Assembly (NCBI RefSeq): GCF_964355755.1 | Contig: NC_092675.1 | Span: forward strand, 16,629,312 to 16,693,311 | Reading direction: 5' to 3' | DNA length: 64,000 nt | From: Antedon mediterranea | Taxonomy: Eukaryota; Echinodermata; Crinoidea; Comatulida; Antedonidae | In this document: in pieces, positions 24 to 54,095 of the stretch | Numbering within the stretch: position 1 is the stretch's first letter | Layout of the letters: each line of letters begins with the position of its first letter | Notes under the pieces: generated by a model | What the model was told of the DNA's origin: nothing | The model's database searches: none | Seen by the model: only the letters and a program-made list of their open reading frames with translations | Made by a program: the position numbers and the translations under genes

Positions 24-60
24 CTAGATGGTACGCGAGCGAAGCAAGCGCACCATCTAG
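24..60. other. GC-rich imperfect hairpin
   Basis: CTAGATGGT at 24-32 is a perfect inverted repeat of ACCATCTAG at 52-60, enclosing a GCGAGCGAAGCAAGCGC core. It lies in CARM1 intron 4 and may be one end or a relic of an inverted-repeat element; function unknown. Confidence 0.4.
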
Positions 61-92
61 TAATTATAATTAAAAGATATTATTTCTATTAC

Positions 93-197
93 CTTATCCC
101 TGAAATCATCATAATTTTGTAATATTGCCTTTTGATAAGTGGACGTTCTTATATAATCTTGCATCATGTTTTGTTGTTGAGATAAGTATCCATAAAA
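93..197 (-). CDS. CARM1: CARM1 coding exon 4
   Basis: Acceptor ctattgtag at 198-199, donor AAG/gtaata at 92-91; 105 nt, phase 0 to 0. It encodes [15 protein letters not shown] through a FRDK end, the two helices that cover the SAM pocket in CARM1. Confidence 0.92.
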
Positions 198-17400: not shown

Positions 17401-20400
17401 TGAATTGTTATACATGGTTCAAAGAATTATGGAGACTGATGATTTGTAACTATTATTATTCTTAAAAGGGTTACAACAATGTTTTTATCACAAAAGAGAT
17501 ATTTTATATTTATACACATTTCCATAGCATACCCAGGGGCAGATCCAGCATTATAGATTAGATGGGCTTAATATTTCATAAATGATAAAAACGATCCGTT
17601 GAGTTATAGTCATTATTGTATTCTAAGAAGACATGGCTGTTAAGCCTGACGCCTGTTTAGCCCCCGTCTAAATCCACGCTTGATACTGGTCAGTAACGTG
17701 AGACGGAGGAAATCCCTGGTTCAGCACTCCTACGGGCCCTCCAACGCTGGGGAGTTGCATTGGGGATGCTCATGCTGTGGCCCCTTAAGCTCTGGGGCTC
17801 CTGGCTTTAGCCAGTGTTAAGCCACTGATAACGGTATTATTAATATATACTGAGCATTTATAAAGCACTCTAAAACTGCTGTCTTCACAATGCTATTGCA
17901 ATGCTAGTAATAATCTATTTGAACAAGCAAGTTTTAAGAAGAGACTTAACACAGAAATATAATATATATATATAAAACTTTGCTGTACTGAACTGTCTTT
18001 ATTATTAATTTTATTTTGTCTCAGCAGGCCACTGACGGAGCTCCACCTTTAAGTAAGAGTGAGGATCGTAGCTGTACTGATTGTCTTTGTGCAATCCTCT
18101 TCCTTGTATTCCTTGTGGGAATGGTTAGTAGCAGAATTTCCTTTTCATTATTCTTGCCACTTATGTCAAGTATAATGCTGTATGCTAGTTTTTGCAATCT
18201 TTCAAGTTTATTATATATTATACTTTTTGAATTATTTTTTTCTGGTGGAACTAGCCTTAAAGCCCTCTCCAGCATAAGTGCATTCTAATAAAAAAAAAAA
18301 AAAAACACTAATATTATTTCACAGTGATGTAGCTTAAGAAAATAAATTGAATTTAATCTGATATTTAGTAATTTTAGCATTCAAAACTACATGCATACTT
18401 AGTCAGCACCCTAATATAAAGTTGATAAATACATAGCATATCGCTTATTGGACAAACTGCAGTGATTTTAAATATTTTCGCAATCTTTTGCAGGGGGTTG
18501 TTGCAGGATTTGCCATTGCAGCAGGCAGTGTTCAACGTGTTGTTTACGGTTATGATAGCTATGGAAACATTTGTGGTATGAAAAATGAAAAATATCCCGG
18601 AGTTGAACTTTCTGGAATGGATATGACAGACATGCCGTAAGTTTTTAGTTTTACCATAGAGGACATAGACCAACTCTATAAAACTAGAGAGTTACCGCAA
18701 TGCAATGAATAAGTTTTTTTTTGAGTAAATAAAACCATTTATGATTGTTTATATAGTACGCTCCTGTTGATGCACTCAAACAGATTGACCAATTTAGGAT
18801 TTTGTCACATTTGATGATCCTTCTCCATAGTACAGTACATCATCACTTTTGAGATGCGATTATATTTGAATTGACCCTCTAGTTGTAAATACCTCTATGG
18901 TTTTATCCAACTAAATCTCGGTCTACACTATCAAACTAGTTTGACAAAAAAAAGTGTGATATGCCCAAATATGGTAGTGATATACAAAAATATGGTAGTG
19001 ATATGATATAATCATGTCCATATATTGGCACATCACATTCATTTTGATAGTGTAGACAGAGCTTAAGATGTGTTTTAGACAGCATTGATGCCTATCTATA
19101 TATTAATGCTACTAAATTGTTCGCGTACTTTACGTATCTCTTCTGAAACCACTGAACGGTACATGCTCACATTTGGCACACTGATGTTTGTTGATGTCAC
19201 TTTCTTGAATTTAAAGGATAAACACTAAAAAAAGGATTAGCAGTAATTTTACCATCTTATGTCACTGTATAAACTACTACAAATACCATGCCGGTCCGCT
19301 AAACAGTCTTTTTAGTCAACTATATCAAATGATTGTGTCATTGTCTTAATTAATTACACCTATTCTTTGAACAGAATGATATCACGGTTTGGCTCGGTGA
19401 GTACCCATTGATGTCAATGCTTAGTATACATTCGAGTTCGATTAACATGATTAAAACTAAAAAATAACCTATTCAAAGTCTGATTTAATTAATCTTCATT
19501 TTTCGAATTTTCAACAAAAAGTTACGCGCGAATGCGCATTTAAAATTTAAAAATGTGCAAAATTAATCTCTAATCAACTTTCTACGCTGATCATGACATT
19601 TTAAGCATGTCAAAAATTTACGCGTAATGTGCGCACGGAGCATGAAAATCATGTGTTTTTCTCTTGAATTATGATCTTACAGCCTTTCCTAGTCATTTTA
19701 AAAAAGATTGACGTCATTTCAAATCAAAAGTCATACGAACATGTTGATTTAGACCATTTGCGTGCGTTTTAGTTGAAAAAGTGCCTAAAAAATTATGCCT
19801 ATTTTGAATCTATTATAGCTCCTCAAGATCATCAATGACCCCCAATTTTTGTAATTTAATATGTAAGCAGATATGTTGTAGATATGAATTCATGCAGAAT
19901 TTTTACCCCTCCGATGTTATGATGTCATCATATGGCCACACGAATGTAAAATGTAAGATTTTTTACTCTTTTGTTATTGCTCATCACATTAAATAGAGCG
20001 CATCTCGCTTATACGTATTCCATTTCCCCGATATTTGAATACTGTCTAGGTCAATCAACTATCTTTCGCATGAGTTAAAAATATTTTAATTTTTGTGATG
20101 TCATCATGTCTAAAAGTGTAAATAACTTGGGTCACCTATTTTCATCTTTACAGTAAATTTCAATCTGTTATAGCTCGTCAGAATAAAAAGTGATAATAAT
20201 GATTAAAACGTTTTCTGGAAGCTTTTGGATTGTAGATTTGAATTCATGTAAACATTTTGCCAATCAGATGTTGTGACATCATCATATGGCCAGTTGAATT
20301 CAAAAAGTCATATTTTTACCTCTTGTGTAAAAGTTCATTGCGTTTAAACAAGAGCGCATTTCAATTTTACGCGCCCAAAATTCTTCAAATTTGTATTAAT

Positions 20401-23400
20401 ATAATTATTTAGATAATTATCTTCTAAAATTGTTATCTTTATGTCAATTTGATGACGTCATTGTGTTAATAATTGGATTTAAATGATGATTCTCGTAATT
20501 TTGTCTATGCTACACTGTATTCTGTAAATACTGTAATATGCTGTATGCTACAAAAGAGGTACAATTCAGCACTGTAAACATATTTGATTAATGTCATAAG
20601 ATGGCATAATAATTGTTGAGGTTCATATAAGTTTAAAGTATGTCCATGTTGCGTTTGCGCGGATAACCCGAACTCGTCAAAGTGACAAGTTCAAATCTAG
20701 TTATTCTTCTTTTTGTACACTTTTTGTGTAACAATTATCTCAAAAAGTTGAATGGCAATGATCACAAAAATTTCACAATTGTCTTTCAAATACTTTAATT
20801 TAGTCCTAATAAGCTTTTCAGTGTGATCACTTATCCGTGACGTCATTTATACGCCATTTTGTGAAATCACATTATCAATCATATCTCCATAATTCATTAT
20901 CACATATTAATGAAATTCACTACACGTAAACTTCAGGTCAAGGGTAAAAATATTAGCAAATAAAAACACACGCGCACGTAAGGTCATGCGCGTTAAATCG
21001 CGCGTTAAAAATTTAAAAAGCTAAAAATGATGTTTTGATCAATTTAGAGCATGAATTAGACCATTTGCGTGTTTCAAAAAATTATTGAGCAAAAACATGT
21101 TTTTGCGCACACAATTCTTAGGAAGCGTAAAAAAATAAAATTTTATGTATAAATCACATTCTACTCGCAATCCTTAGTATATTCACCAATTTTGAGTCCA
21201 TTCCGACTTAAAATAACGCTATACTATATTTTATCTACAGTATATGTATCACTGGTAACATTACCCACCGGTAACATTACAAATTTAGAAGATTCAAAAT
21301 AAATAGTTTGGCATTTTATACTTTCGTTAGTGTTTGCGCGCATCATCTAACTCACACATTACCATTTTTGTTTAGCGTCTTTTATTTTTGTTCCATATCC
21401 AGTATTTGCTTTCATTTTTCAGTCTACATATATATCAAAGTGAAGGGATAGTGTATAACAAATCAATGGCCTTAAAGGGGGGTTCCGGGTTTAAAATGAA
21501 TAGTAAAAAATGTAAAATATATTTGTTTGTCTCTTGAACGGTAAAAGTTTCAATTTATATAAGCGTCCAGTGAAGCAGAACGAAGGCTGTGAAATCAGGC
21601 CAGATTACAAGTGCAGCTACGGCAAAATCACACTGTGGTTACAAAATAGGAAATTCGTGAAATGGTCCATCTTCCGACGACTCGTTATCATAAACCATAT
21701 CAATTACTTTTGTAAAATTATACTTATCTGATGTAATTTTAGTTGGTCTTCCCATTTATAAAGTCAATTTTTTATGAAAATTCATCAAAACAGTGAAAAA
21801 TTAGATATGTTTGCACTTTACGTTTGCTGATTTTCGCACCGACTTAGGGAAAAATCAAAATCAATGAAGCGTAACGTATACTGTACATTCCTGCTGGCGA
21901 GACGACGATACACGTGCTCTCTCTGCTGCCCATGCCTGGCATCGTCACGTGATAAGCAGATACAACAATACCAAACTGGTCGGGTCGAGTATACCCCGTC
22001 TATAATCACAACATGAACGATGTACAGTATTTGATTGAAGGTCGACTCGACCTACCGGAATGGTATAGATAATATAGCTCGAATGAGAGAGTTGGAATAT
22101 TTGTGTAGTGCAGCCTATAGTAAAAGGCCTGGTAGTATCAATTCGCATAGGGTCTACTACACTAGCTAGCTCACTTTTTAACTGGGCCGGATCGGCTAGG
22201 TCTCCTTCCTACTACCTGGTCTACTTGCTTGATGCATGAGTATCCGCTTTTTTGGAGAGTAAACTAAACCTATTTATTTTAGGCCTACTTAGACGATCGG
22301 GACACCATACGTGTGGACGGCGATCGGACCTTGTTTTGCTTCAATATTTACAGCCGATTTTGTAGAATGTTTTAGGTTTAGATTGTTTAGGAGTTTGGTT
22401 GATAGGATGGGTTTTGTTATTTATTTATGGGCCAATCGTCTAGTAGTAGGCTAGCTAGGCCCATGGGCCCCATTGTTTTAACGTAGCCATCGTGGCATGG
22501 AATCCCTAGTCAGAATGGCTCTCGCCCATATTATTATTAGGCTAGGCCTAGAGTAGTATTTGTACGTGAAGCCGATAATACGATCTGTACTATAGAGGTA
22601 TAAAAATAGTATAATTTATGACTCCGTATCTGTACTAAATTTTGTATTTCATTAAATGTCAAATAAATATATGCTACTACTGTTATTACACTTTAGGCCT
22701 AGCTTAGAAAATCTACAAAAAATGTATTTCACAATGATCACAATGGTGGTCGAGTCGTCGTTTGACAGGGGAGAGAGATGTAAATTAGTTGACAAACACA
22801 ACGTACATGACGTCGCGAGTTTGGAATCCACTCCGTCTCGTTATTACTTCTTCATTCTGAAATGTCTATATTGTTATAATATTTTTTATTTAATAAATAA
22901 ACGATATTTAAAAGCAATTTTAAACCCAGAATCCCCCTTTAAATACAGTAGTTCAGAATTTTAGTCTTGATACAAGTTGTTTTTATTTTAATAATTTTTC
23001 AGAGTACTTTTATCAGAGTGCGGTTTTATTATACTTGCCCATGCAAAGTATATAACCACCCACATAAGGCAGAAAAAAACCGTGCAGAGCACAGGTTACT
23101 GCAGTGCTTAAATTTGTTTTATTCCTGTTATGTACAGAATACTATTATACTGTACAGTATATATTACAAACCTGTAGAGAGTGTCATGAAAATCAGTTAA
23201 TGCTGCGTACACAAACATTCTTGGCAGGAAAAGCTAAAATTTCCAATAAATTTATAGATACGTCTTCTTCATGAACATCCTCGACCCAGATGACAGTATT
23301 GAGATTTGTGTGAAAAAATGTCCCACCGGTAACATTACAAATTTAGAAGATATTAAAGCATTTGCAGAAGAAAGTGGCAGTAAGCTTTGTTCATATAACA

Positions 23401-26400
23401 CCCCGATTGAAGACTATCCAACTTCTAAACAGGATGAACTAGGGCCTTGTCCTGAGCGTGATTCACTGCATGACAGGTATGTACACATTCTTTTATTTAT
23501 ATTACAATTTTTTTAATTGTGATAGATTGAATAATACTGTAACTTGTAGTGTACTCTGTCTATAATTGAATAATACTGTAACTTGTAGTGTACTCTGTCT
23601 ATAATTGAATAATACTGTAACTTGTAGTGTACTCTGTCTATAATAATACTATAACTTGTAGTGTACTCTGTCTATAATTGAATAATACTGTAACTTGTAG
23701 TGTACTCTGTCTATAATTGAATAATACTGTAACTTGTAGTGTACTCTGTCTATAATAATACTGTAACTTGTAGTGTACTCTGTCTATAATAATACTGTAA
23801 CTTGTAGTGTACTCTGTCTATAATAATAATACTGTAACTTGTAGTGTACTCTGTCTATAATAATACTGTAACTTGTAGTGTACTCTGTCTATAATAATAC
23901 TGTAACTTGTAGTGTACTCTGTCTATAATAATACTGTAACTTGTAGTGTACTCTGTCTATAATAATACTGTAACTTGTAGTGTACTCTGTCTATAATAAT
24001 AATACTGTAACTTGTAGTGTACTCTGTCTATAATAATACTGTAACTTGTAGTGTACTCTGTCTATAATAATACTGTAACTTGTAGTGTACTCTGTCTATA
24101 ATAATACTGTAACTTGTAGTGTACTCTGTCTATAATAATACTGTAACTTGTAGTGTACTCTGTCTATAATAATACTGTAACTTGTAGTGTACTCTGTCTA
24201 TAATAATACTGTAACTTGTAGTGTACTCTGTCTGTAATAATACTGTAACTTGTAGTGTACTCTGTCTATAATAATACTGTAACTTGTAGTGTACTCTGTC
24301 TATAATAATACTGTAACTTGTAGTGTACTCTGTCTATAATAATACTGTAACTTGTAGTGTACTCTGTCTATAATAATACTGTAACTTGTAGTGTACTCTG
24401 TCTATAATAATACTGTAACTTGTAGTGTACTCTGTCTATAATAATACTGTAACTCGTAGTGTACTCTGTCTATAATTGCTCTATTCATGAAAATATTCTC
24501 CTTATTCATACCCATTCCTTTTTGTACAATGTTTTTTTATACATAAACATTGTAACTGTTGATTATTTATTGAGGATTAATGATAGGCAATAGACACGTT
24601 TCGCGCTCGCGAGGTCACCGTCAGTTTGACCTTTTAGTGGGTATACAATGGTAAACAAACACAGCGAGAGGTATGTTAAAGCATGGGAGAACTGAGAGAT
24701 GATCTTCTTAAAAAGCAATCGTCAAAACTAGCCTTTTGATGGAATGGCATGGTAAGGATGTTATTATTTTCTAAACTTATGTTTTATATTCACTGTAGAA
24801 TTATTTGGGCATTTGGTTCGGAATCATCGACTTTATTTATGTATTGTCATTTTTGGTTTGACACATATATATTACGGTGCATTTAATACATGTTAACTGT
24901 TGATTTTATTTACAAATGTTTCGTAAATATATTAATTATTATATTTCATTCTTCTTCATGCTCCTATTGCATCTTCCATGTATTATGTGATGTTCTTCGG
25001 CGCTTAAACAGACACCCAAGCCTCCTAGGCCTAGTAGACGAAGTACCGCATCAGAAAACGCCACCGGGCGGGCGGAGAGACACGAGCACATCGTGGACGA
25101 ACCTTTCCTTGAAAAATTTCCAAAATTTTGTGCCACTATCCTTCGGAGCCGACGCAAACCACTCAGCAAGTGTTTGAAAATTAAAAACAGGAATATTATT
25201 CAGTGATTTTGTGTAGTTAAATTCACGATGTATCCAACATATACAACATTTATGATGCACCTTGCAACAAAAGCACTCGGCAGTCGCCATTTCGCTATGC
25301 TTCAACACGCACTAGGCGAGAGATGTTCGGTTTGTTTACAAATCTGTACCCACTATTTCTGATTGGTCGCGAGCGAGAAACGTGTCTATTCATTTTAAAT
25401 TAGGACATGTTTGTTGACATGGTAATAGTTTTTTTCTTTTTTATATGCTAACAAAACTTTAAAACAATGTTTATTTTTACAGTACCCCGGTTTTCAACCG
25501 CTGCATCCCAGATAATGTTAAAGAATTAGGAAAATCTTTTCTCGAAACCGCATTGGAAATCTTGAATTCCAATCAGTACATTACCAAAATTGTAGCAGAT
25601 TTGTACATGGCAAGGTGGGCCATATTGGGAATGTGTGGACTAGCCTTTGGTAGGTATAATGTTAATAAAATGTCCTCAAATTAACACATCATTTTCAGAG
25701 AATAATGGTTAATGGTTTTAAATTTGTATAGCGCATAATACAAATAGTCTCTATGTGCTGTGGACTCAGATGTTAGACTTTTCAACTACATGCTTTTCCC
25801 CTACATGCTTTTCCCCTACATGCTTTTCCCCTAAGGGTCATATCATATCATTTGTCCACGAAACAGAGAATAAGTACATTCGAGGAGTGAAAATGTACAA
25901 TTGGTATGAAATAAAAACTAGGTGTCGAAATTCTCTCCCAATGAATGTTCTTTACTAAATGGAACTTTGTATTTACAGTGTTTGCCCTTGCGATGGTGTT
26001 TCTTATTCGGTTTGTTGCAAGTTTTATTGTGTGGATTATATACGCCGTTGCAATTGGATCCTCTGGAGGTATGTAGGCAACGATCATCATAAGCAAAATC
26101 AAATGAAGGTGTTTCAATTGAATAATAATATTACTAGCAGGTAAACGTCCAATGGATGGCATGGCCACCATGATAAAAGTGAATATATGTTCTAGAAATG
26201 TATATGGCACGTCATTGTGAGAGTAACAAAAATACAGAGAGTATTTATATTTTAAAATATCCAGGATTTATAAAGCACTTTATGTTGTGAAACCTCTCTA
26301 ATAGCTGATCATACAGATAACTGAGGGGAAAATGCTAAACCCAAACCGAAATATGAGGATACGCCCTTGTCAGTAACCAGGGTTTGGTCTAAATTGCACC

Positions 26401-29400
26401 TTGGTGAGCAGCAGTTGTGGCTCTGTCATCCCGGTCTTGAGCGCCTCCAACCCTATAGTAAAGAAACTGAAACTCATAAAGTGAATAGGTTTACTGTATT
26501 CTTAAGCCAGAAAGTTTCTTTCCCTGTTCACACTTATAAATATTGTGCTTTGATTGATGTATTATATATTCTTTTGTATTTTTTAATAAATAATGGGCGC
26601 ATGAGATCACTATACAGTACCTCCTCCGATTTATGTTCGAAATAATTCAGCATGGTCGTCAATAGCATGCTCGATCGACGATGACCTGCTGCCCGTGGCG
26701 CTCTTTAACCGTTATTGTCAGGTTATTGATATTGCATACTCGATTGATTATACTAGCGGGGAAACGGCTAAGGATTTCCAGGATTTGCTTGAATAATATG
26801 TTAATTATTTAACTATTTATGTTTACTTTAGCTGTAACTGTCCTTCTCTGGTATACATATGTACAGAGGAAGAAAGATATGGAAGGATTTGGAGAAATGG
26901 TACCAGACTCCATTAAGGAAGATGTCAGAGCTTTCCTTATTTATTCAATCATAGCTACAGTGTTTTTTGTAAGTGAAGTGTTTTTTTTTGCTGAATCCGA
27001 AATTCCTATACTGTGTAAATTCAAATGTTTCTATTTATGGTATATGATAAATATACTTTAGTTCCAACTGCCTGCATATGAAATACTTGAGCATGGGATT
27101 ATACTTGAGCATGGATTATACTTGGTATTGGATTATACTTGAGCATGGGATTATACTTGGGCATGGGATTATACTTGGGTATGGGATTGTACTTGGGTAT
27201 GGGATTGTACTTGGGTATGGGATTGTACTTGGGTATGGGATTATACTTGGGTATGGGATTATACTTGGGTATGGGATTATACTTGGGTATGGGATTATAC
27301 TTGGGCATGGGATTATACTTGGGCATGGGATTATACTTGGGCATGGGATTATACTTGGGCATGGGATTATACTTGGGTATGGGATTATACTGGGTATGGG
27401 ATTATACTGGGTATGGGATTATACTGGGCATGGAATTATACATGGGCATGGGATTATACATGGGCATGGGATTATACATGGGCATGGGATTATACATGGG
27501 CATGGGATTATACATGGGCATGGGATTATACATGGGTATGGGATTATACTTGGTATGGGATTATACTTGGGCATGGGATTATACTTGGGCATGGGATTAT
27601 ACTTGGGCATGGGATTATACTTGGGCATGGGATTATACTTGGGCATGGGATTATACTTGGGCATGGGATTATACTTGGGTATGGGATTATACTTGGGTAT
27701 GGGATTATACTTGGGTATGGGATTATACTTGGGTATGGGATTATACTTGGGTATGGGATTATACTTGGGTATGGGATTATACTTGGGTATGGGATTATAC
27801 TTGGGTATGGGATTATACTTGGGTATGGGATTATACTTGGGTATGGGATTATACTTGGGTATGGGATTATACTTGGGTATGGGATTATACTTGGGTATGG
27901 GATTATACTTGGGTATTGGATTATACTTGGGTATTGGATTATACTTGGGTATTGGATTATACATGAGCATGGGATTATACATGAGCATGGGATTATACAT
28001 GAGCATGGGATTATACATGAGCATGGGAGTATACATGAGCATGGGAGTATACATGAGCATGAGATTATACATGATGAGCATGGGATTATACATGATGAGC
28101 ATGGGATTATATTCGGTATGGTATATCCACCATCCTGCCTGATCTGGTCCTACAGAATATATTGTATAAATTGATTTTCTTGTTTTGTTTAGGTGGTTCT
28201 GTTGCTTGTAATTCTTGTAATGCGTAAACGTGTTGCATTTGCCGTGGAGCTGTTAAACCAAGCTGGCAAGGGCCTCATTGCTATGCCCCTTCTTCTCATT
28301 CAACCTGTGTGGACATTCATTGCTTTGCTGCTGTTCTTTGCTTATTGGTGTGTTGTAATGCTATTCCTTTCTGTCACTGGTAAGTATGACATTTGTCTAT
28401 AGGGTAATACATTCATTCACACAAACAAACAATCAATCTCTTTGTCTTTGTCACCTGGAAAGTGTTCCAAATTTCAAAAGTAAATGTTTTCTTTTACAAA
28501 ATCAACGGTCACTTTTTTGGTAGGGTCACTTTTCTGGTTTCCATAATAAAATGATTCAACTGGTAGGTTTAGCCCAATGCAGTGATAAATGACATGACCT
28601 GATGTGGATCACACCACCAGGTAACCTACTTTTCCAGAAAGATGCACTGGGTTCTTTTAAGTGTATACTAGCCAGATATGTAGGCCTATACTGGACCTTC
28701 AGTTTTAAGTCCTTATTCGAGAAGACTTGTTCTACCACGTTAGTCACCCATATGGTGTGTTGAAAGTTTAACAACAATTAAATTCACCAGGTAAATAATC
28801 AATGATGATCATGGATAATTATTAATTAATTTTTTGTAATTACATATAGGAAAGCCAATACAGTATAACAACACAATTAATGGAGAGATGCATGTAGAGT
28901 ATCAGGAGGGTGAACTGATCAGCTACTTCTGGTGGTACCATGTGATTGGTTTGATATGGATTGCAGAGTTCATTTTAGCATGCCAACAGTTTGTAATTGG
29001 AGCCTGTGTTGCTGATTGGTACTTTACTAGGTGAAAAATATATGCAGGTTTTAGTGTATTCACATTAAGCCAATCTTGAGAAAGGAAGTTTCTAACAGAT
29101 AATCTGTATGTCATGTTCTGTCACACCTTCATATTAAGATATGTTGATTCCCTTTCTCTTCTGATGTAGCTTGTCTTACCCTTTTTATACCTGCTAAATT
29201 GTAACTAGATTTGCATAGTGTGAACAAAATTTTGTGAAAACTGTTTTTTGTTTGTTTTGAGATGTTACTGCTCTGGTATTAAACTGACGAATCATAGTAA
29301 TCAAATAGAGCGCAACTACAATATGCTGTCTTCCGAGATTTCTCATGGTTCATGTATGAGTGTATGAAAACATGTAATAAATCGAGAGATCAAACCTAGT

Positions 29401-32400
29401 TAAAACTTGTTACAAGTTGTAACAATTTATGCAGAAAAGGGTATAAGGCATTGATGGCACAAGATTTTGTCTTTTGTTACACTGCCTTTGTCCATAAATT
29501 ATTACATTTTTATTGTATTTTATCTTACTCTGTCTTCTGAAGGTAAATAATATCTTTTGAAAATTATCAGGAGTTGCAGACACAAAATGTGTTATGGTGC
29601 TCTGTTGCCAACACAACCCTGGACCGCTTGTTAAATAAAGGAAAGGAAAATCACATTTACACTTCTGTTTCAACAGATCTATTTAAAGTGCTCATTCCAA
29701 ATTGATTTCGACAAAGCAGTTTTAATTGCTTAGAATATTTAATATTCTGTTCATCATTTTTGTATTAAATTTTCTTTTCAGAGATAAAAAGAGCTTTTCC
29801 TCACCAATTCTGCGTAACATCGGGTATCTCATTAGATACCATTTTGGATCTGTTGCTTTTGGATCTTTTATCATCACTTTGGTGAAGATTCCCAGGGCTA
29901 TTCTAATGTATATGCAGTCAAAGTAAGTCAATAACCTTCTGATAAATCAATAGATAGGGAGGTTGTTGATTTTAGTTCAGCCATTCTTGGAAACATCATC
30001 ATCATCTTTTATTTGGTTCCTTTCTCCCTTTTCTAAGGGATTACTATTACTCATTCCATCTCATAACATCGGCAAGTGTTCGATGCTCACTCGCTCCATG
30101 GTGGTAGAAAGAGTGTTCTCTGGACTAAACTGTGGGTAACTGTAAAGAACCTAGTACACCATTCGAGATGAGTATAAGTTACCCTGGTATACTAGTACAC
30201 ACACACAGCCGCTGTCATAACTGGGCCCTCTGGAAGAACAGTCTTTTACTGAGGCTACCCAAGAAAGAAATGATAAATAAAATAAATTATTTGTTCAAGG
30301 AAATTGTGATAATTTTTCATTAATATTAATCAAAATGTTCATTTCTAGGATGAAGGGAAGTGAGAGTGAATTAGTGAGATTCATGTTGAAATGCCTTTCT
30401 TGCTGTTTGTGGTGTTTGGAGAAGTTTTTGAAATTTCTGAATGCCAATGCCTACACTGTTATTGGTACGTTAACTCAATCTTGATAGCAAATGTAGGCCA
30501 CAATGACAACAGTGTATTTTCTTGGAGATCCCTACTTGTTAGACATATGCCATTATTCCTTAATATGGACACCCCTCAAAAGGAAAATAGAATAGTCCAG
30601 TGGTGTGTGGATGTATAAACGTCTCTCATCCTCATATCTTTTCACTCATAAACTACAAACACCAAATCAGCCATGTTTCCGCAGCCATAACAAATTTATC
30701 GGTTAATTTTGTAACAAATGAGATAATTAATAACAAAATAAAATGCGCATGATCACACATTACCAAACAACCAAGTGCTGATTTGTCCTTCACATCAAAG
30801 ATTGAAAATTTAATTATCGCATTTATCCGACAATTATCTGATCTGAATGAGATAATTATTGGTTAATTTTTCTTGGGTGGAATCAGTTAAACCTCATTTC
30901 CACAGGAACTTTATCAGTTAATTTTTATCAGTTATTTTTGGGTACGGAAACATGGCCAATGTTGTTTGTTTAATGACATGTTATGTTGTAAATAACATTA
31001 TTTTAAAACTTTTTTGTTTCTATGACTCATCATAAAATATTTATTATCATTTTTTTGTTTAAAAGACTGGGTTTTATTAGTTTCTTTTTAATAATGTTGT
31101 TGTTTTTTTCCTCATAGCAATTGAAGGAAAACATTTTTGTTTCTCTGCCAAGCGAGTAAGTTCTGTTTATTTTTCAAACTTTGTGTTCTAATAATATTAT
31201 AGTGTCTTGCGCCTGTTTCTAAACACAAAAAATATCCTAAAATAACAACAATTTAAGATGAGGAATATTGACTTCAAGTCCGTAGCAAGAGGTTAAAACC
31301 AGATGCTTTCAATATAATTATTAATATAAAATATGACGACTTGTGATGGAGAATTAGGGTGGTTGGTGAAAATTGAAATTTCATTTCTCATGCTGGCTAC
31401 GACTCTGGACTTTATACTTTCTTTAACACAATATTTTTAGATTATACAGATAAATGATAAAGGTCTTAATATTTTATGTTATTCTAGGCGTTTATGATTT
31501 TGGTGTCAAATGCATTGCGTGTTGCTGCCATCAACTGTGTTGGGGACTTTGTCCTATTTCTTGGTAAACTGGGTGTAGCAGGATTAACTGCCCTCAGTGG
31601 TATCTTGATCCTAGAGGTGAGTAATTAAATAATATGCACAACAAACATTTAATGTTCAAAGTCTATTGTTAAAAGAAAAACAATATACCTGCCAACTCTC
31701 ATGCATAATGCACAAGTCTTTAATTGTTTATGCCTCAAACATGGCTATTTCTCACGCATCCATTACAAATATTCAGAAAAACATTATTTTGAAATTAAGT
31801 GATTGAATTTAACTTAATTGAAGGAAAAATAGCCAGAACTACACATTATTTAATTGATTTGAGCATAAAGAGCCTAGGCCTATGTTTATTTGTATTTTAT
31901 GGTTGAGGTAGTACAGGAACGCCAACTCAATTCGGTGACAAATTTAACATGTATTTCATGATTATTTTTTGTTATTATAACATAGAGGGCACTTATACAA
32001 TTCAATTTACTGCATTGGCCACTGAAAAAGTTGGCAGGTATACAACAACATAATGACATAAAGTTTGTGATACACTGCGTATGTAATTCAGTTCATTGTG
32101 TACCATAAACTGTAAAACAGTATTGATTTTTGCAATGCCAACCAACCATTATTATCTTTGCTTTTTATGTATATTTACCTTTGAATTGATATCATTTTAA
32201 TTTTTGTTCATTTACTTAGTTTCAACAGCAGTTCCTGCCAATGCCTCATTGATAATCTTATTCAGTGATGCTCACCGAGACCTATACCTTTTTTCAGAAA
32301 AAGGAAACATATTGCCTATGCTTAGGCATACAAATATTTAAATTTTTGTGTTAATATTAAATTGCATAATTGATTGTGTTTTACCATTGTGGTGCTATAT

Positions 32401-35400
32401 TGCTTATAGAACCCAAGAAAGTCATTGTCTCTGATGCCCGATGTTTCGATCAATTGAATAATTTAACAACTTGGTTAAAATGTTTGACCATTCTGTGTTT
32501 CTTGTCTACGTTTTAAAATTTAATGTAATTGTTTTTGCTAATGACCATTTACTCGTAGGCTATTGATGATCTCAACTATTTTGCCGTGCCACTATTGGCT
32601 GCTGCAATATTTGCTTTTCTTATTGCGTGTGCGTTCTTTTCTATTTATGAGGTAGGTTTTAAAGCAATACGAGCTGGATAGCACGCGTATATATAGTGGC
32701 ACCTTAGCCAAAGTTACCTCGCACTCAAAGCATGTTTTTATGTTGTGTTGGATTAATTAACAGATGATTTTTTTGATTGTTGTACTTTCAATCAGGCCAA
32801 GGTGTAATTACTTTTGAGAATGCGTATTCAACATATTTGTCATTGACTAGGCTGCTAAAGGCAAACTATTAAAAATAGTTCTACCAATATCCACTTGCAT
32901 TGGCCATATTATTAAAACCATGTATTGCCATGAATCAGGTGTCCCAAGGGAAACATATTTTCTTTTCTCAATTCTGGAACCTTTCCTGATTATTCAGTAC
33001 ACTGTTTTCATCACCTAAATGATTGAAAGTACAAATGAAAAATACTCATACTATACATGCCTACTAATATTTTGTGTTTTTATATGTATTCTAATATTAA
33101 TATTCATATTGAAATATTTGGAGTGTACTTTTCTATTTTCTATAGTGTGTTGGGGATCACTCAAGTGTATCATATACTTCTTTAGCTGTGCCCTTATTAG
33201 TTGGTGCTGTATTTGCATATCTTATAACATGTGCATTCATTAGCATATATGAGGTGGGTAGTGGGGACATAACATTTTGGATATATGATGTTTAATGGAT
33301 GAGGTACAGTAACTTAACACTATGGACACTGATCCGTTGTGAATGTTTAGAGAGGAAAACACCAGAATTTCACCAAAAAAAATCCCCCCTAAAACTACCA
33401 AATGTTATAGGTTGGCCAGAATCTGCTCCCGTGTATAGTATCCATACTGTCAGTGTTGTAGCCACAAGAAATAGAGTTGTGCGGTTTTCACAAGAAAAGG
33501 GAACAATCTCTGTTCATGTCGCTGGCCTCTGTGACCTTACTAAACCGTACTGGTGGCTACGGCCCTGACTGTAATTAGGGTGGCATTAATTTGCTGTACA
33601 AACCACTCTAATGTTTGAGGTCAACAAGTTTTTGATAATTTAGAATGTTTTTATCTCTTACTATTATAATAATCAAAGGTCAGAATTTATCTTTCTTTCA
33701 TTGGGTTTGATCAACACAATTATCAATATAAGGGTATAGTGTCATACTAACTTGTTTGATGTTTATACTAAAGGCCACTAGTATAGAGCTTACTATAGCA
33801 AACATAAGATAAAATTTACCTTATCTAATCTCCATATATATACTGGCTTAAAATATACAGCTATATTTAATTGCAAATTGAATTTTTTAATCTATATATA
33901 AAATTTAATTCATTTTTAAAATTATATGCTAATATAAAATATATAGTATAGTATTTTTAATAAATAAATCAAAATAACTTCACCTATAATTTCATCTTTA
34001 ATTGAAAAATGTAAATATTCATAATGAACACAAGACACCTGTATTAAGTAAACACAGTTTGCACATTTCGCATGTTGCATATGCACTTAATGTTGATATT
34101 GTGTGAAGAATGTTGTAGAATAGTGTTATGATTACTGTGAATTCAAAGTATTTGTGATTATTCATATCAGACATAATCATCATCGCCACACAGTCATAAT
34201 CATCATCCCCACACATAATCTTTGTCACATGTATAATCATCAAATCACTATCACACCTACAGACCTCCCAACTCTCCAGATAATGTAGTGATGGATGAAT
34301 AGGATTGTCTTCAAAATTTCTCCTACTAAAGTGCAGTTCTCCCGATAATTTGGATAAATATAAAAAATCTCCTGATATGTAATTTTGAATACTCTAGATA
34401 TTGATAAGAGAATAGAAAAGATACTACTGTCAGTTTGTATAATGTTTATAATCAATGTATTCGTTGTTTAATGACCATGTTTACAATTATAGATGCCAAT
34501 ATCTTTAGGGTTTTCCCTCTATGATTTTATGTATTTTAGCACCCTCTATAGTTTCATAAAGCCCCGCCCCCCCCCCCCCCCCCCGATAGTTTTTCCGAGT
34601 TGAGAGGTATGCAGCTACATCATATATTACAGAGCCAATCATTACAAATACTATCGCATCAATGATCATCATCACCGCATCAATAATCATTATCACTGTC
34701 ATAAAATTATCATAATTCACAAATTTAATTCACAAATAGCATAATTTTAGGAAACAAAAGATAATAAATATTTTAATTAATCTTTAATAATTATTTCATC
34801 TGATCCACTGATGCTGCTATTGATATTGTAAATGAATACAAAATGACAAATTAATCTTTGTAACTATTTTCATTCTCTACATCTAAAGATGACTATCGAC
34901 AGTCTACTGATCTGTTTCTGTGAAGACACCAGAGTGAATGATGGCTCTCCAGCTAAGCCGTACTTCATGGAGTCTGGACTCATGGTAAGTCTTGCAAGAA
35001 AGACATGCTATATTGAAACCATCCATACTTGTTTATCAATGTATATTGCCTCTTGCCAATATTATTGCCCTTATCTTAATAATATTAAGATTGCTGATTT
35101 TTTTTTTATTACTAGTTGATTTCTGGTTCAGGTCTTTGGAGTCTGTTCCTTCAATATTTGAAGGAACAGGAATATTGATAGTGCAAATTAGCCCATTTAA
35201 ATTTAAGCTGGTTGAAATTGGGCTTTTCTCCAGCAATAAGCATGGGCTGAATTATTATTGCACTCAATCTGCATAGTCTAGTGCTGTGATTGTGAAATCA
35301 AAAAGATGTTAACAATTGCCATAAATGAATTGGGACTTGGATCTTTTCCAATTCACTAGGGTTGTGGTTGAGCTCTAAAGCTCTGTCTACACTATCAACC

Positions 35401-38400
35401 AAGGTGGTAATATGCCCAAATATGGTAGTGATAGACATCATCATGTCCATATTTGGGTACATCACATTTTTTTTATCACATTTGATAGTGTAGGCAGAGC
35501 TTTTACTTGTTTTTCCCACTTGTGATCAAACCATTGACCAAACACAGCTGCACTAGCCAATGAATGTCGCTAAAACATTAATATTCTGTATTATATGTGC
35601 TTTTGTTATATATTATCCCTACCTTAAGAATGTTTTCATATTAAATGATTTGATATGTGTGCAATAGTATTAACTTTTTAGTTGCGCTTATATTGGTATC
35701 CTATTCAATAAATATTTCTGTCTCCTGAAATGTAAAATTATGATTTTTCTTTATTTTACACGTGTCAGAATCGTGTATCATTGGAATATACTTTACTCAA
35801 ATTATGTATACCAAAGTATTTCATCAACCTATTACTTACTACTACCTTATAAATAATAATATATAAAATAATAGATATAATATATATAAAATATTTGAGT
35901 AAAATGTAGTAGTACTTCCGGCTAATAGCACCATAGTAATTAATAATCGTACACTTTTATGAATGATATATTTGTGTTTAAATCAATTTACCACTTTTAA
36001 TTTCATCATCTATCCTTTATTACCCTGTTCCACATGATGGGTTGTAGAGTATTACATCAACCTTATCCTTTATTACCCTGTTTCACATGATGGGTTGTAG
36101 AGTATTACATCAACCTTATCCTTTATTACCCTGTTTCACATGATGGGTTGTAGAGTATTACATCAACCTTATCCTTTATTACCCTGTTCCACATGATGGG
36201 TTGTAGAGTATTACATCAACCTTATCCTTTATTACCCTGTTTCACATGATGGGTTGTAGAGTATTACATCAACCTTATCCTTTATTACCCTGTTCCACAT
36301 GATGGGTTGTAGAGTATTACATCAACCTTATCCTTTATTACCCTGTTTCACATGATGGGTTGTAGAGTATTACATCAACCTTATCCTTTATTACCCTATT
36401 TCACATGATGGGTTGTAGAGTATTACATCAACCTTATCCTTTATTACCCTGTTCCACATGATGGGTTGTAGAGTATTACATCAACCTTATCCTTTATTAC
36501 CCTGTTTCACATGATGGGTTGTAGAGTATTACATCAACCTTATCCTTTATTACCCTGTTTCACATGATGGGTTGTAGAGTATTACATCAACCTTATCCTT
36601 TATTACCCTGTTCCACATGATGGGTTGTAGAGTATTACATCAACCTTATCCTTTATTACCCTGTTTCACATGATGGGTTGTAGAGTATTACATCAACCTT
36701 ATCCTTTATTACCCTGTTTCAGATGATGGGTTGTAGAGTATTACATCAACCTTATCCTTTATTACCCTGTTCCACATGATGGGTTGTAGAGTATTACATC
36801 AACCTTATCCTTTATTACCCTGTTTCACATGATGGGTTGTAGAGTGTTACATCAACCTTATCCTTTATTACCCTGTTTCACATGATGGGTTGTAGAGTGT
36901 TACATCAACCTTATCCTTTATTACCCTGTTTCACATGATGGGTTGTAGAGTGTTACATCAACCTTATCCTTTATTACCCTGTTTCACATGATGGGTTGTA
37001 GAGTATTACATCAACCTTATCCTTTATTACCCTGTTTCACATGATGGGTTGTAGAGTGTTACATCAACCTTATCCTTTATTACCCTGTTTCACATGATGG
37101 GTTGTAGAGTGTTACATCAACCTTATCCTTTATTACCCTGTTTCACATGATGGGTTGTAGAGTGTTACATCAACCTTATCCTTTATTACCCTGTTTCACA
37201 TGATGGGTTGTAGAGTGTTACATCAACCTTATCCTTTATTACCCTGTTTCACATGATGGGTTGTAGAGTGTTACATCAACCTTATCCTTTATTACCCTGT
37301 TTCACATGATGGGTTGTAGAGTGTTACATCAACCTTATCCTTTATTACCCTGTTCCACATGATGGGTTGTAGAGTATTACATCAACCTTATCCTTTATTA
37401 CCCTGTTTCACATGATGGGTTGTAGAGTGTTACATCAACCTTATCCTTTATTACCCTGTTTCACATGATGGGTTGTAGAGTGTTACATCAACCTTATCCT
37501 TTATTACCCTGTTTCACATGATGGGTTGTAGAGTGTTACATCAACCTTATCCTTTATTACCCTGTTTCACATGATGGGTTGTAGAGTGTTACATCAACCT
37601 TATCCTTTATTACCCTGTTTCAAATGATGGGTTGTAGAGTATTACATCAACCTTATCCTTTATTACCCTGTTTCACATGATGGGTTGTAGAGTGTTACAT
37701 CAACCTTATCCTTTATTACCCTGTTTCACATGATGGGTTGTAGAGTATTACATCAACCTTATCCTTTATTACCCTGTTTCACATGATGGGTTGTAGAGTG
37801 TTACATCAACCTTATCCTTTATTACCCTGTTCCACATGATGGGTTGTAGAGTATTACATCAACCTTATCCTTTATTACCCTGTTTCACATGATGGGTTGT
37901 AGAGTGTTACATCAACCTTATCCTTTATTACCCTGTTTCACATGATGGGTTGTAGAGTATTACATCAACCTTATCCTTTATTACCCTGTTTCACATGATG
38001 GGTTGTAGAGTGTTACATCAACCTTATCCTTTATTACCCTGTTCCACATGATGGGTTGTAGAGTATTACATCAACCTTATCCTTTATTACCCTGTTTCAC
38101 ATGATGGGTTGTAGAGTATTACATCAACCTTATCCTTTATTACCCTGTTCCACATGATGGGTTGTAGAGTATTACATCAACCTTATCCTTTATTACCCTG
38201 TTCCACATGATGGGTTGTAGAGTATTACATCAACCTTATCCTTTATTACCCTGTTTCACATGATGGGTTGTAGAGTGTTACATCAACCTTATCCTTTATT
38301 ACCCTGTTTCACATGATGGGTTGTAGAGTATTACATCAACCTTATCCTTTATTACCCTGTTTCACATGATGGTTTGTAGAGTATTACATCAACCTTATCC

Positions 38401-44460: not shown

Positions 44461-44705
44461 GAGAGAATGTATCTGGTGGTTGAAATTCTGTGATAATACT
44501 ATATATGGCCGGTCTGTGGTCTAGTGGTGTGATACTCACCCTGTAAGTGAGAGGTCGCAGGTTCAAATCCCACCAAAGACATTTTTTCATACAACTAAAA
44601 TATATGGAACTTTCGCTAATGAGCTATGTTCGATGCGATTATGAGATCATGTTCTGAATATGAGCACTGTTTCAATAATTTGACAGTATGATTTATATAT
44701 ATATT
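44461..44705 (+). mobile_element. tRNA-derived SINE-like repeat, copy 2
   Basis: Homologous to 16195-16415. The tRNA-like head (about 44511-44581) has a 6/7 paired acceptor stem (GTCTGTG/CAAAGAC), a perfect anticodon stem CTCAC/GTGAG around CCTGTAA, and GGTTCAAAT, but the T stem has mismatches. On the minus strand it encodes WDLNLRPLTYRVSI, a typical artefact of tRNA-derived repeats. Confidence 0.75.
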
Positions 44706-44732: not shown

Positions 44733-45040
44733 CTATTCAAGTTTAGTTAGAGTGTCTGCATATTGAAAGTCTTGAGATTGTTCATATTGATACATATCTA
44801 AAGCTACTTCACAACTCTCTTTTACGACCACTTCTTTATCCTGACTGAAATCTTGCAATGTTTGTAAGCACTCATCAGCAGCAATGGAGCCTAGGGCTTC
44901 CGCACATTCATGACGAACCATTGGGCTTTCATCCTTTAGTTTCAGATTTTCTTTCAACTGTTCAATACCTGCTGGGTTTTGCATCTGGCCTAAGACGTAT
45001 GCTATTTCATGACGGAAGAGTGCACTGTTACACTTTAAGC
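44733..45040 (-). CDS. DOHH: DOHH exon 4 (terminal)
   Basis: 308 nt, enters in phase 1, stop TAG at 44735-44733. It carries the third and fourth His-Glu pairs and the conserved [10 protein letters not shown] and FQYADTL C-terminus. Confidence 0.96.
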
Positions 45041-48000
45041 CTAGAAGAAAAAACATACAAGTGCACATGAGCCTTATAAACATCTATACAATATTTTCCC
45101 CAGGACCTTTCAAGAGACCATGATACTTGTGTACATGTACAATTAACAATTACTGCAATTTAATTCTCCGCCCAATTTATATTAATTGGAGAACCGAAAA
45201 TGGCTTCAATCGGCTGCTCTCTCTCTCTCTCTATGGATATTGTGACAACGCTTCTTTAAGCCTGTTTTTCTGTCGTCACGTTATCGTTAACAATAATCTT
45301 CTACGTAAACTTTGAAATGTTAACGATTTACACAAAAAAGTACACGCTATCGTTATCACTTCAACTTGATCGTTTTCAAACGATCGTCGTTGAACTGTTT
45401 ACAATCAACGACCATATGATAGCGTCGAATAACGTCGACAGGAAAACAGGCTTACAGAATGTTGCAAACCTTAAAATCTAGGAACCACAGACTTCTTTAT
45501 TTATTTATTTATTTCCTTTATTGTAAACAGTGATGAAGTTGACATAAATATAATAATAAATATATATAAAAAAAAACATAGTATAACACAGTCCAAACAA
45601 GTAATACTAAAATATATCATAGTCCACAAATCAGTCTTTCAATGGCCATCATAGTCTATCCAGTAACACAAACCAAAAGGGGTTCACAATTTGCTTATCA
45701 TAACTCAGTTTCTGATCATTCACCAATCATTGAAAACTCCGTGGAAAGTAATTAAGTTTTTTGTGCGTTGTGTCCGAACTTTGGGGAGGGTGAACGATCT
45801 AACGCGTCGGAGCTGATGGTTGTGTGTGGGAGGTTTAGGTAAGAGAGAGTGTAATCTATGATCTTCTTTTTTCATTTTATCAAAGAATTTTCTTGACAAC
45901 TTCTTGCCATAGGACATACTGTACTTCAATAAAACCAGTTCTAAAATGTCCTTATGTGAAACGAAGTTTTCTAATATAATTCCGACAATATAATAATAGT
46001 ACAACAAGACTGAAGACCTTTATAACTTTATAAAATGCTGTACAACCTCACCTTGTGCTAATGCAAGAGCTGAAGAATTTGTGTTGATATTTCGGAGTGA
46101 GAACATGGCTCTGTAACGGTCAAATAGGGGCAAGTTCTCATTCAAAAGTTTTTGTTGAAGAAGTGCCAGGTCATCTTCTGTAGATGGTGGTGCTGGGTCA
46201 ACAGATTTGAATGGATTTTGACTTAATTTTTCATTTTTATCTTGACTGTTAAGCCATTTTATTCGTTCTACAGCTAGTTGACATGTTTCAGCAACCTAAA
46301 AAAGATAAATGACCAGTATAATCGACCACATATATCTACGCATGTTGCACCTAGGGGTGCAAATCAATAAAATAGTGATTATGTTTATTTTAGGATATTT
46401 TAGGTTGTTTTGTGAATTTTTTTTTTGTGTGTTGTATGTTAGATGTACTATCCAAATTAATGGAAATGAAATGAATGCTCCATAATGTGTAAAAAAAATT
46501 GTGACTTCATTCTGTATGTGGCTTACAAACAAGTACTATCATCATAATTACTGTACATTATCACTTTGTTGTTTGGCTTAATTAGGTATTTAAACATTAT
46601 TTTGTATTCACTTATTAATTTTTCCTCACCTCAATTACAGGATCATTGCTATATTCTTTTAAAACTTGAACCACACTATCACAGCCAATGGCACCAAGAG
46701 CTTCTCCTTTAAATATAGTTATATAAAACGGGTCATACTAAAAATCTACGTCCAGCAGGGCCCGAAATCACCTTGTGGGCCCAGTAAGGTTTTATGATAT
46801 AACATTTTATTAAGTACATCCTAACATTATATTTAACTTTATTCTAATATTTAATTGTACATTTTATTTTATACATTTTTAAATTAAAGATGTATTGTCC
46901 CCATGAAACATGAAAAATGAAGAATAAAATCTTTTAATAAACCATTTTGAAGAAAGAAAAAAAAAAAAAAAAAAAAAAAAATGTATTATTTCACTTATAG
47001 AAAGACAAACGAAATGGTTAATTTCATTTTTTTTTTTTATGTAAATCATTTTTTTTTATGTAAATCATTTTTTTTTCTCAATCCAGTTTTTGGTCAAATT
47101 GAATAACTTTACGTGACATGAAATAACATATTCAACACAAATTAAATAAAACATTTTTAGGGGGACAATATATCTTTAATTTAAGTCAAAATAATAATTA
47201 GGTTTATTCCGAAACTGAAGACCGTCCTCTGTGATAAGTGATGTTTTGTGGTGTTGAAGCGGACGGTTGACGCATTTAGAATAAAAAGTTTAACAATATT
47301 TTAACTAATTTTAACTTGCTTCTGGAAAGAAAAGAAGGTTGTGAACGGCGCCCAGTGGGTGAACAGACCACCCCTTCCGCTGAATGTGGCCGCTGCCACA
47401 ATAGCTTGATTTGCATATACGGGGTATGCAGATGTTAACATGGGACCTCGGCGCTGCCCGATCCGGTCTATTTGCAGCAGGGCACCAAGAAGGTAAGGAC
47501 AGAACCAAAAACCGAAAAAACCAAAAACAACTTACTTGGTCATGCTCTACTACTTGTGTAATTATTAGGACAGTGGAACTAATAAGGAAAGCTTATGTGT
47601 GTTAACTTCACAGTAGCATTATCGATCTCCTTTCTTTGCATCAGGGGAAGGTTTAGTTAATAATAATAATAGAAGCATGCTCAGCCAAGTTTTAAACTGC
47701 TGGAGCCAAGAAACCGACGAACGTGGCCGGCACTCAACCAGATGGCAGTGGCGGGCATCAAGAAAGGGAAGATACATGAAGACATCTGGCAGCCTTGTAC
47801 GGCCAGCACATTATAAGCATATGGAAAAGCACAAGGAGAGCGACTGACCAAGCGCGAATGGCTGTGCCACTGGTTGTGCATGGGACATCGGCCTTGTGTG
47901 GTTTGACTGGTTACAGAGAGATCTACAACTTTCTCGACATGCGGCCCTCTGGGACATGGAGCGAGCGGTTTGGCTGAGAAGCAGCCTCCAGTCTGTGGAA

Positions 48001-53652: not shown

Positions 53653-53726
53653 GGCGCTGTGGCTTAGTTGGTTAAAGCGCCTGTCTAGTAAACAGGAGAT
53701 CCCCGGTTCAAATCCGGGCAGTGCCT
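53653..53726 (+). tRNA. tRNA-Thr (anticodon AGU)
   Basis: Complete cloverleaf: acceptor GGCGCTG/CAGTGCC (7 pairs, one G-T), D arm GCTT/AAGC, anticodon stem CCTGT/ACAGG with loop CTAGTAA (AGT), T arm CCCGG-TTCAAAT-CCGGG. No intron. A T-run follows at once and can terminate Pol III. Confidence 0.96.
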
Positions 53727-54095
53727 CTTTTTTTTTAAATTTTTTTTAAAGTGAATTTTTTTCCTGGTGTAATAATTATCATTTCCAATTTTTTGTATGG
53801 TATATTTTTTAAAAATAATATTTAAATTAAGGATCCAATATCCCATTCATCCATGACTGCATCATGTATCCACTGCTGAGGAATAGGAGGGGTGGTGAGT
53901 GTATGAGAAAACAACGCGCCCGAATTTCAGAAAAAAACTAACAAAAGTTCAATACTGATCTAGTTAGCTAAGGTTTTCTTTTCAAGACAAATCTGCGCCG
54001 TTTTGTTTGCACGTCATATGCACTGTATACGTACAAACATATGAAGTCTATTTGATAATGATAATAGTCACTTCCTGTGTGCATTCGCGCACGAA

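What the first reader, a model, noticed from the sequence alone, without database searches (positions are those of the whole stretch)
32559..33253. Duplicated, probably mutually exclusive exons for the last membrane helix of SLC44A1
Exons 14a (93 nt) and 14b (108 nt) are adjacent, both phase 0 to 0 with intact splice sites, and encode homologous versions of the same helix ([14 protein letters not shown] and [14 protein letters not shown]). Loop residues before the helix differ and 14b has five extra. Using both would add a helix and flip the C-terminus, so exclusive use is expected. It would give two transporter isoforms differing at the last helix and its outer loop. I am not aware of this in vertebrate SLC44A1.
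Basis: partly seen in the sequence, partly recalled or inferred. Interest (0 to 1): 0.75.

Follow-up and report, generated by a model that had tools for sequence, protein, structure and literature searches.

The report
Duplicated last-helix exon in CTL1 gene
In this animal genome the gene for the membrane protein CTL1 (SLC44A1) carries two different intact versions of the exon for its last membrane helix, so the animal can probably make two forms of the protein by choosing one or the other; this is a known kind of arrangement, in a gene where my searches showed no earlier report of it.

Summary
Exons 14a (32559-32651, 93 nt) and 14b (33146-33253, 108 nt) are open, phase 0-0, with GT-AG sites, between exons 13 and 15 of a CTL1/SLC44A1-like gene. 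Their similarity is not chance (E 1e-8 in the window; 17 of 24 aligned residues identical). 14b keeps 8 of 8 residues (of 24 aligned) shared by human CTL1, a paralog on contig C11 and 14a. The C11 gene has one such exon, 93 nt, closer to 14a: 14a is probably ancestral, 14b derived. With equal branch times 14b evolves under constraint (omega 0.24; lnL 2.5 better than neutral); a fit with free times could not tell. Both-in and both-out transcripts stay in frame, so nonsense decay cannot enforce exclusivity; the argument is topological. No RNA data or relatives' genomes were available: mutually exclusive use is inferred, about 0.72. No docking/selector pairing beyond chance was found. 'Two transporter isoforms' must be hedged: PMC13160678 suggests a non-transport role for CTL proteins. 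New member of a known kind.

The parts
   Evidence: aligned to human CTL1
32559..32651 (+). exon 14a, 93 nt, phase 0-0: M9-M10 loop and M10; the ancestral-type copy
   Evidence: same length and phase as the single exon of the C11 paralog
33146..33253 (+). exon 14b, 108 nt, phase 0-0: homologous loop (five residues longer) and M10; the derived copy
34889..34984 (+). exon 15, starts in phase 0 with ATG (equivalent of Met592 of human CTL1); common downstream partner
28193..31155 (+). five upstream exons of the same gene (28193-28379, 28850-29030, 29782-29922, 30349-30464, 31118-31155), one open frame through to exon 13
   Evidence: PF04515 E 4.7e-100 (14a form) and 1.8e-99 (14b form)
18490..27000 (+). 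further upstream exon pieces of the gene (about 18494-18634, 23256-23473, 25480-25650, 25974-26070, 26830-27000; borders approximate, the first exons not delimited)
   Evidence: read by eye; two of these pieces (81 aa) match human CTL1 residues 43-71 and 107-144
32780..33034 (+). intron between 14a and 14b: perfect 15-bp inverted repeat (32780-32794 / 33020-33034), 225 nt between the arms; single match in the genome; role unknown
   Evidence: as long a repeat in 3 of 5000 shuffles of this intron and in 15 of 500 shuffles of the whole 31617-34888 stretch

Best explanation
A tandem exon duplication inside a CTL1/SLC44A1 gene has given two alternative last-helix exons that are most likely spliced mutually exclusively: exon 13 joins either 14a or 14b, and either joins exon 15. 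14a keeps the ancestral length and sequence; 14b is the derived copy, with a loop five residues longer before the helix and six changed residues inside helix M10. Shown: both exons are intact, homologous, in phase and carry the family-conserved residues, including the equivalent of the pocket glutamate (Glu591 of human CTL1). Inferred: 14b is used, one at a time, probably in a tissue- or stage-specific way; the choice is made by splicing factors and site strength rather than by frame, steric distance or mixed spliceosomes; and the swap retunes the outer entrance and helix packing while leaving the pocket glutamate in place.
For: Both splice forms open, GT-AG, phase 0-0. Homology E 1e-8 in the window, 17 of 24 residues. 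dN 0.19 against dS 1.37 between 14a and 14b (NG86). 14b keeps 8 of 8 positions shared by human, C11 and 14a. With equal branch times omega_b is 0.24 and lnL -221.30 against -223.79 for omega_b = 1 (twice the difference 4.97, about P 0.03 on one degree of freedom by my arithmetic); omega_a = 1 gives -229.38. Neutral decay from a 14a-like start leaves an open frame, the GT and at least 17 of 24 residues in 22% of 4000 runs at 0.2 changes per site, 3.2% at 0.3, 0.3% at 0.4 and none at 0.7; the neutral fit itself implies about 0.3 per site, dS about 0.7 per branch. Hydropathy peaks are those of a membrane helix in both (2.6 and 2.3). Human CTL1 has 10 membrane helices, with Glu591 and Met592 of M10 in the putative pocket (PMC13160678, section 8); the exon ends at the equivalent of Glu591. 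A passage of PMC5740500 calls cassette splicing of two membrane-helix exons highly unlikely; a passage of PMC3228551 reports that 90 of 16,180 non-exclusive exons (0.56%) of the fly X chromosome share such features.
Against: No transcript evidence for either exon. No relative's genome could be searched, so conservation of 14b is unknown. The three-branch fit with free times does not reject neutrality of 14b (lnL -221.20 against -221.23), and the C11 branch ran to its upper bound: synonymous sites are saturated and 24 codons are few. 14b changes faster than 14a (equal omegas lnL -223.37). No inter-intron pairing beyond shuffles and no unusual folding of the 14a-14b intron (z -0.88). Nothing in the frame prevents joint inclusion or skipping.
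Confidence: 0.72

Rival explanations
1. 14b is a relic or nearly unused exon: a duplicate that survives by chance or is included only at noise level, with 14a as the only functional last-helix exon.
For: 14b evolves faster than 14a, carries a five-residue insertion in the loop, and the fit with free branch times cannot exclude neutrality. The C11 paralog does without it.
Against: Open over 36 codons, both splice sites canonical, the richer pyrimidine tract of the two (15 of 18 against 11 of 18), 8 of 8 family-conserved residues kept, decay simulation (weak if divergence was only 0.2 per site).
Confidence: 0.15
2. Both exons are used but not exclusively: some transcripts contain 14a and 14b together, giving an 11-helix protein with the C-terminus outside, or the pair acts as loosely regulated cassettes.
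For: All four combinations of the two exons stay in frame; the intron between them is 494 nt, long enough to be spliced; all sites look like ordinary GT-AG sites.
Against: Topology: M10 is the last of 10 helices in human CTL1 and is followed by conserved sequence encoded in exon 15; the C11 paralog shows one copy and the human protein in the PDB has one M10 (the human gene was not examined).
Confidence: 0.1
3. Assembly artefact: the second exon is a misassembled allele or a paralog's exon.
For: None found; named because duplicated stretches can arise in assembly.
Against: The matching stretch is 79 nt at 73% identity and the flanking introns show no comparable match; each peptide has one exact place in the held genome.
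Confidence: 0.02

Closest known systems
Mutually exclusive tandem duplicated exons in solute carriers (SLC25A3 and SLC39A14, named in a passage of PMC5740500)
   Same: Adjacent homologous exons of the same phase for the same stretch of a membrane transport protein, expected to replace one another.
   Different: Those rest on transcripts; here exclusivity is inferred from sequence only. The term SLC44 occurs 0 times in the main texts of PMC9741552 and PMC5740500; their supplements were not seen.
Docking-site/selector exon clusters (Dscam, 14-3-3 zeta, Mhc; passages of PMC6071210)
   Same: Exons with lengths in multiples of three, for which nonsense decay cannot enforce exclusivity, so another mechanism is needed.
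   Different: No inter-intron pairing beyond shuffles was found here; only a local 15-bp inverted repeat within the 14a-14b intron.
Human CTL1 (SLC44A1), PDB 7wwb and 9qu3
   Same: Same protein family, same loop and M10 region; the equivalent of Glu591 is the last residue of both exons.
   Different: One version of M10 in the solved chains; position 584 is His in human and in the C11 paralog but Cys in both 14a and 14b.

Membership tests
Mutually exclusive exon pair (tandem duplicated exon substitution) | Neighbouring internal exons of similar length | tested here: met
Mutually exclusive exon pair (tandem duplicated exon substitution) | Same reading phase and compatible splice sites | tested here: met
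   Phase 0-0 and GT-AG in both
Mutually exclusive exon pair (tandem duplicated exon substitution) | Sequence homology between the exons | tested here: met
   tblastn E 1e-8; 17 of 24 residues
Mutually exclusive exon pair (tandem duplicated exon substitution) | Transcripts with each exon and none (or only non-productive ones) with both | not testable with these tools
   No RNA data held
Mutually exclusive exon pair (tandem duplicated exon substitution) | Conservation of both exons in relatives | not testable with these tools
   No collection of other animal genomes is held; one scan each of genome contigs and viral contigs with the 14a form confirmed no relative
Exclusivity by nonsense decay, steric closeness or mixed U2/U12 sites | Frame shift when both are included; very short intron; U12-type sites | tested here: not met
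   Both-in frame open; intron 494 nt; donors gtaggt and gtgggt, acceptors tag (the U12 consensus is recalled)
Docking-site/selector RNA structure | Competing long-range pairing between flanking introns | tested here: inconclusive
   Duplex energies no better than shuffles: 9 of 40, 40 of 40 and 14 of 40 shuffles as good; the long inverted repeats across introns are mostly AT-rich and imperfect; no relatives for covariation
SLC44 / CTL family | PF04515 domain | tested here: met
   E 4.7e-100 and 1.8e-99 for the two forms, 335.4 and 333.5 bits against cut-off 26.9
SLC44A1 (CTL1) subfamily | Closest to CTL1 among SLC44 members | tested here: inconclusive
   The two PDB sequences matched by the 14a form at E up to 0.001 are both CTL1 (E 1e-109), but no other vertebrate SLC44 member was compared, a second CTL1-like gene lies on C11, and no tree was built

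The most novel reading that the evidence does not exclude
An old, lineage-wide splicing switch swaps the last helix and outer loop of CTL1, the helix that carries the pocket glutamate, and so changes what this enigmatic protein binds or partners with at the cell surface; comparing the two natural forms would give a handle on the disputed function of the SLC44 family.
Probability: 0.3. Interest if true: 0.55.

Novelty: new member of a known kind. Interest (0 to 1): 0.4.

Why it matters
The function of CTL1 is disputed: PMC13160678 suggests a non-transport role and reports an unidentified density in a pocket partly formed by M10. A gene that naturally makes two versions of M10 and of the loop before it would be a ready-made comparison of which residues matter there. 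It would also add a solute carrier to the list of tandem duplicated exons, and offers a case in which exclusivity must be achieved without help from frame, distance or mixed spliceosomes.

Tried and rejected
Docking/selector pairing: the longest inverted repeats across the introns are mostly AT-rich and imperfect, and duplex energies between introns do not beat shuffles; dropped as a claim. The 15-bp perfect inverted repeat in the 14a-14b intron is unusual for that intron (3 of 5000 shuffles) but less so for the whole stretch (15 of 500), and the intron folds no better than shuffles overall (z -0.88, 19 of 100 shuffles as good); kept only as a lead. A dispersed-repeat origin of that 255-nt stretch was checked: the genome search gave only itself.

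Face of the helix: I tested whether the six in-helix differences between 14a and 14b cluster on one face or toward Glu591; they do not significantly (fractions 0.55 and 0.14 of 27,132 combinations).

Splice-factor motifs: TGCATG is absent from introns and exons between exon 13 and exon 15 (plus strand); the other short motifs scanned prove nothing.

Branch-specific omega without equal times could not be identified. YN00 estimates failed in the script, and one NG86 value (14a-C11 dS) could not be computed. Relatives in genome contigs and viral contigs: none confirmed. A mitochondrial gene for placing the species: no match in G000. Literature: no paper of the library holds both 'SLC44A1' and 'mutually exclusive exons'; in the capped lists of seven further searches (8 to 15 papers each, of 51 to 4,764 that passed) I saw no title or abstract on such exons in SLC44A1. 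Five papers were opened, by abstract, passages and, for PMC13160678, sections 8 and 10. Structure prediction was not tried, because by its stated rule that tool takes proteins that the DNA gives letter for letter, which spliced ones are not.

Full report
The observation. The window lies in contig C6 of an unnamed 354-Mb genome. Reading exon by exon gives one open frame from 28193 through exon 13 (31488-31616), then either 14a (32559-32651) or 14b (33146-33253), then exon 15 (34889-34984), all with GT-AG borders; 14a and 14b both begin and end in phase 0. Both spliced forms match Pfam PF04515, at E 4.7e-100 and 1.8e-99. Of 177,635 distinct PDB sequences the 14a form (the only form searched there) matches two at E up to 0.001, both human choline transporter-like protein 1 (7wwb, 9qu3; E 1.2e-109). 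Two upstream exon pieces also match CTL1, so the gene looks whole, although its first and last coding exons were not delimited.

More than chance. 14a's peptide finds 14b at E 1e-8 in the 64-kb window. The DNA match is 79 nt, 73% identical, ungapped, and ends six bases past the donor sites; apart from matches of 14 nt the surrounding introns show none (a 106-nt match is only the overlap of the two pieces compared). Genome-wide, 14b's peptide has 3 matches at E up to 10: itself, 14a and the C11 gene; 14a's has 6, adding three of the C10 genes.

History. The genome holds other PF04515 matches: four long single-frame genes on C10, three groups of exon matches on C4 and one CTL1-like gene on C11. 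I fetched one of the four C10 genes, all three C4 groups and the C11 gene. In the C11 gene the intron positions on both sides of this exon are the same; the exon is 93 nt long, phase 0-0, and only one copy is seen between its exon 13 and exon 15 equivalents. Its last 24 residues match 14a at 14 and 14b at 12 places, while 14a and 14b match each other at 17. Both 14a and 14b have Cys where human and C11 have His (position 584). The simplest history is that 14a is the ancestral exon and 14b a later tandem copy that gained 15 nt in the loop, after the C6 and C11 genes split. Each of the three C4 groups gave one last-helix hit below E 0.1 with these exon queries, a weak test for second copies there.

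Is 14b kept by selection? For: dN 0.19 and dS 1.37 between the copies; all 8 positions (of 24) shared by human, C11 and 14a are kept in 14b; with equal time on both branches omega is 0.005 for 14a and 0.24 for 14b, and fixing 14b at neutrality lowers lnL from -221.30 to -223.79; random decay seldom leaves such an exon unless divergence is small (22% of 4000 runs at 0.2 changes per site, 3.2% at 0.3, 0.3% at 0.4, none at 0.7; all amino-acid differences charged to 14b). Against: with free branch times the data do not tell; the C11 branch is saturated and at its bound; 24 codons are few; equal omegas for both copies fit worse (lnL -223.37), so 14b evolves faster. I take 14b as probably functional.

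What the swap would change. Human CTL1 has 10 membrane helices; the putative pocket includes Glu591 and Met592 of M10, and His584 lies in a positive patch near the pocket entrance (PMC13160678, section 8). From the alignment the 14a exon corresponds to human residues 561-591 (the script printed 560-591, one residue more, which belongs to exon 13), so the exon ends at Glu591 and Met592 is the first residue of exon 15. Both copies keep the glutamate. They differ at 568, 574, 575, 577, 580, 583 and 587 (human numbering) and in the preceding loop, which is five residues longer in 14b. The in-helix changes show no significant preference for one face. So a change at the outer side and in helix packing is the reasonable guess, not a new pocket residue. 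That paper suggests a non-transport role for CTL proteins, so I do not adopt 'two transporter isoforms' as shown.

Why exclusive, and how. All four combinations are in frame. Joint inclusion would add a membrane helix before the conserved C-terminal part and omission would remove one; a passage of PMC5740500 makes the same argument for paired helix exons. Reading frame, a short intron and mixed spliceosome types cannot be the means. I looked for competing intron pairings and found none beyond shuffles. A perfect 15-bp inverted repeat sits within the 14a-14b intron; its 255-nt stretch has no other match in the genome, and without relatives it cannot be judged. The acceptor of 14b has the richer pyrimidine tract (15 of 18 against 11 of 18), so 14a may need help or 14b repression; that is inference.

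Compared with what is known. It meets the sequence criteria for mutually exclusive exons quoted in PMC3228551 (passages), where 90 of 16,180 non-exclusive exons of the fly X chromosome share such features. Tandem duplicated exons are said to be enriched in ion channels and ion transport genes (PMC9741552, abstract and passages). SLC44 does not occur in the main texts of PMC9741552 and PMC5740500; supplements were not seen. No paper of the library holds both 'SLC44A1' and 'mutually exclusive exons', and the capped lists of seven other searches showed none on such exons in this gene; most subscription papers are outside the library. I call it a new member of a known kind.

Verdict. Observation confirmed; interpretation partly supported, with mutually exclusive use at about 0.72, pending RNA-seq junctions and relatives' genomes. 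Interest 0.4.

Noticed in passing
31684-32042: Intron 13 carries a 359-nt element with perfect 14-bp terminal inverted repeats (TATACCTGCCAACT); a search of the genome gave 41 matches, itself included (a lower bound), the others at 70-84% identity: a MITE-like family.
   Followed up: partly
34255-34620: The intron before exon 15 holds another dispersed repeat, with a stretch like the end of the first (ACCTCCCAACTCTC); 47 matches in the genome, itself included.
   Followed up: partly
36011-38828: A 53-nt minisatellite, 53 copies, 97% matches, about 1 kb downstream of exon 15 and perhaps in the next intron; as 53 is not a multiple of 3, its peptide reads openly in all three frames in turn.
   Followed up: no
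27083-28121 and 23530-24476: Two more long minisatellites (18-nt unit x 58; 34-nt unit x 27) in other introns of the same gene; the 18-nt array ends about 70 bases before an exon.
   Followed up: no
G000 C10:15795257-15819281: Four PF04515 genes each in one open frame (725-742 residues) close together on C10, in contrast to the many-exon CTL genes on C4, C6 and C11.
   Followed up: partly
44733-45083 (-): ORF with HEAT_PBS/HEAT_2 repeats (E 1e-10); perhaps an exon of a deoxyhypusine hydroxylase-type protein (name recalled, not tested).
   Followed up: no
53653-53727 and 44512-44581: tRNA-Thr (AGT) found by both tools; the second tRNA-like stretch was found only by Rfam, at 35.6 bits against a gathering score of 29.
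   Followed up: no
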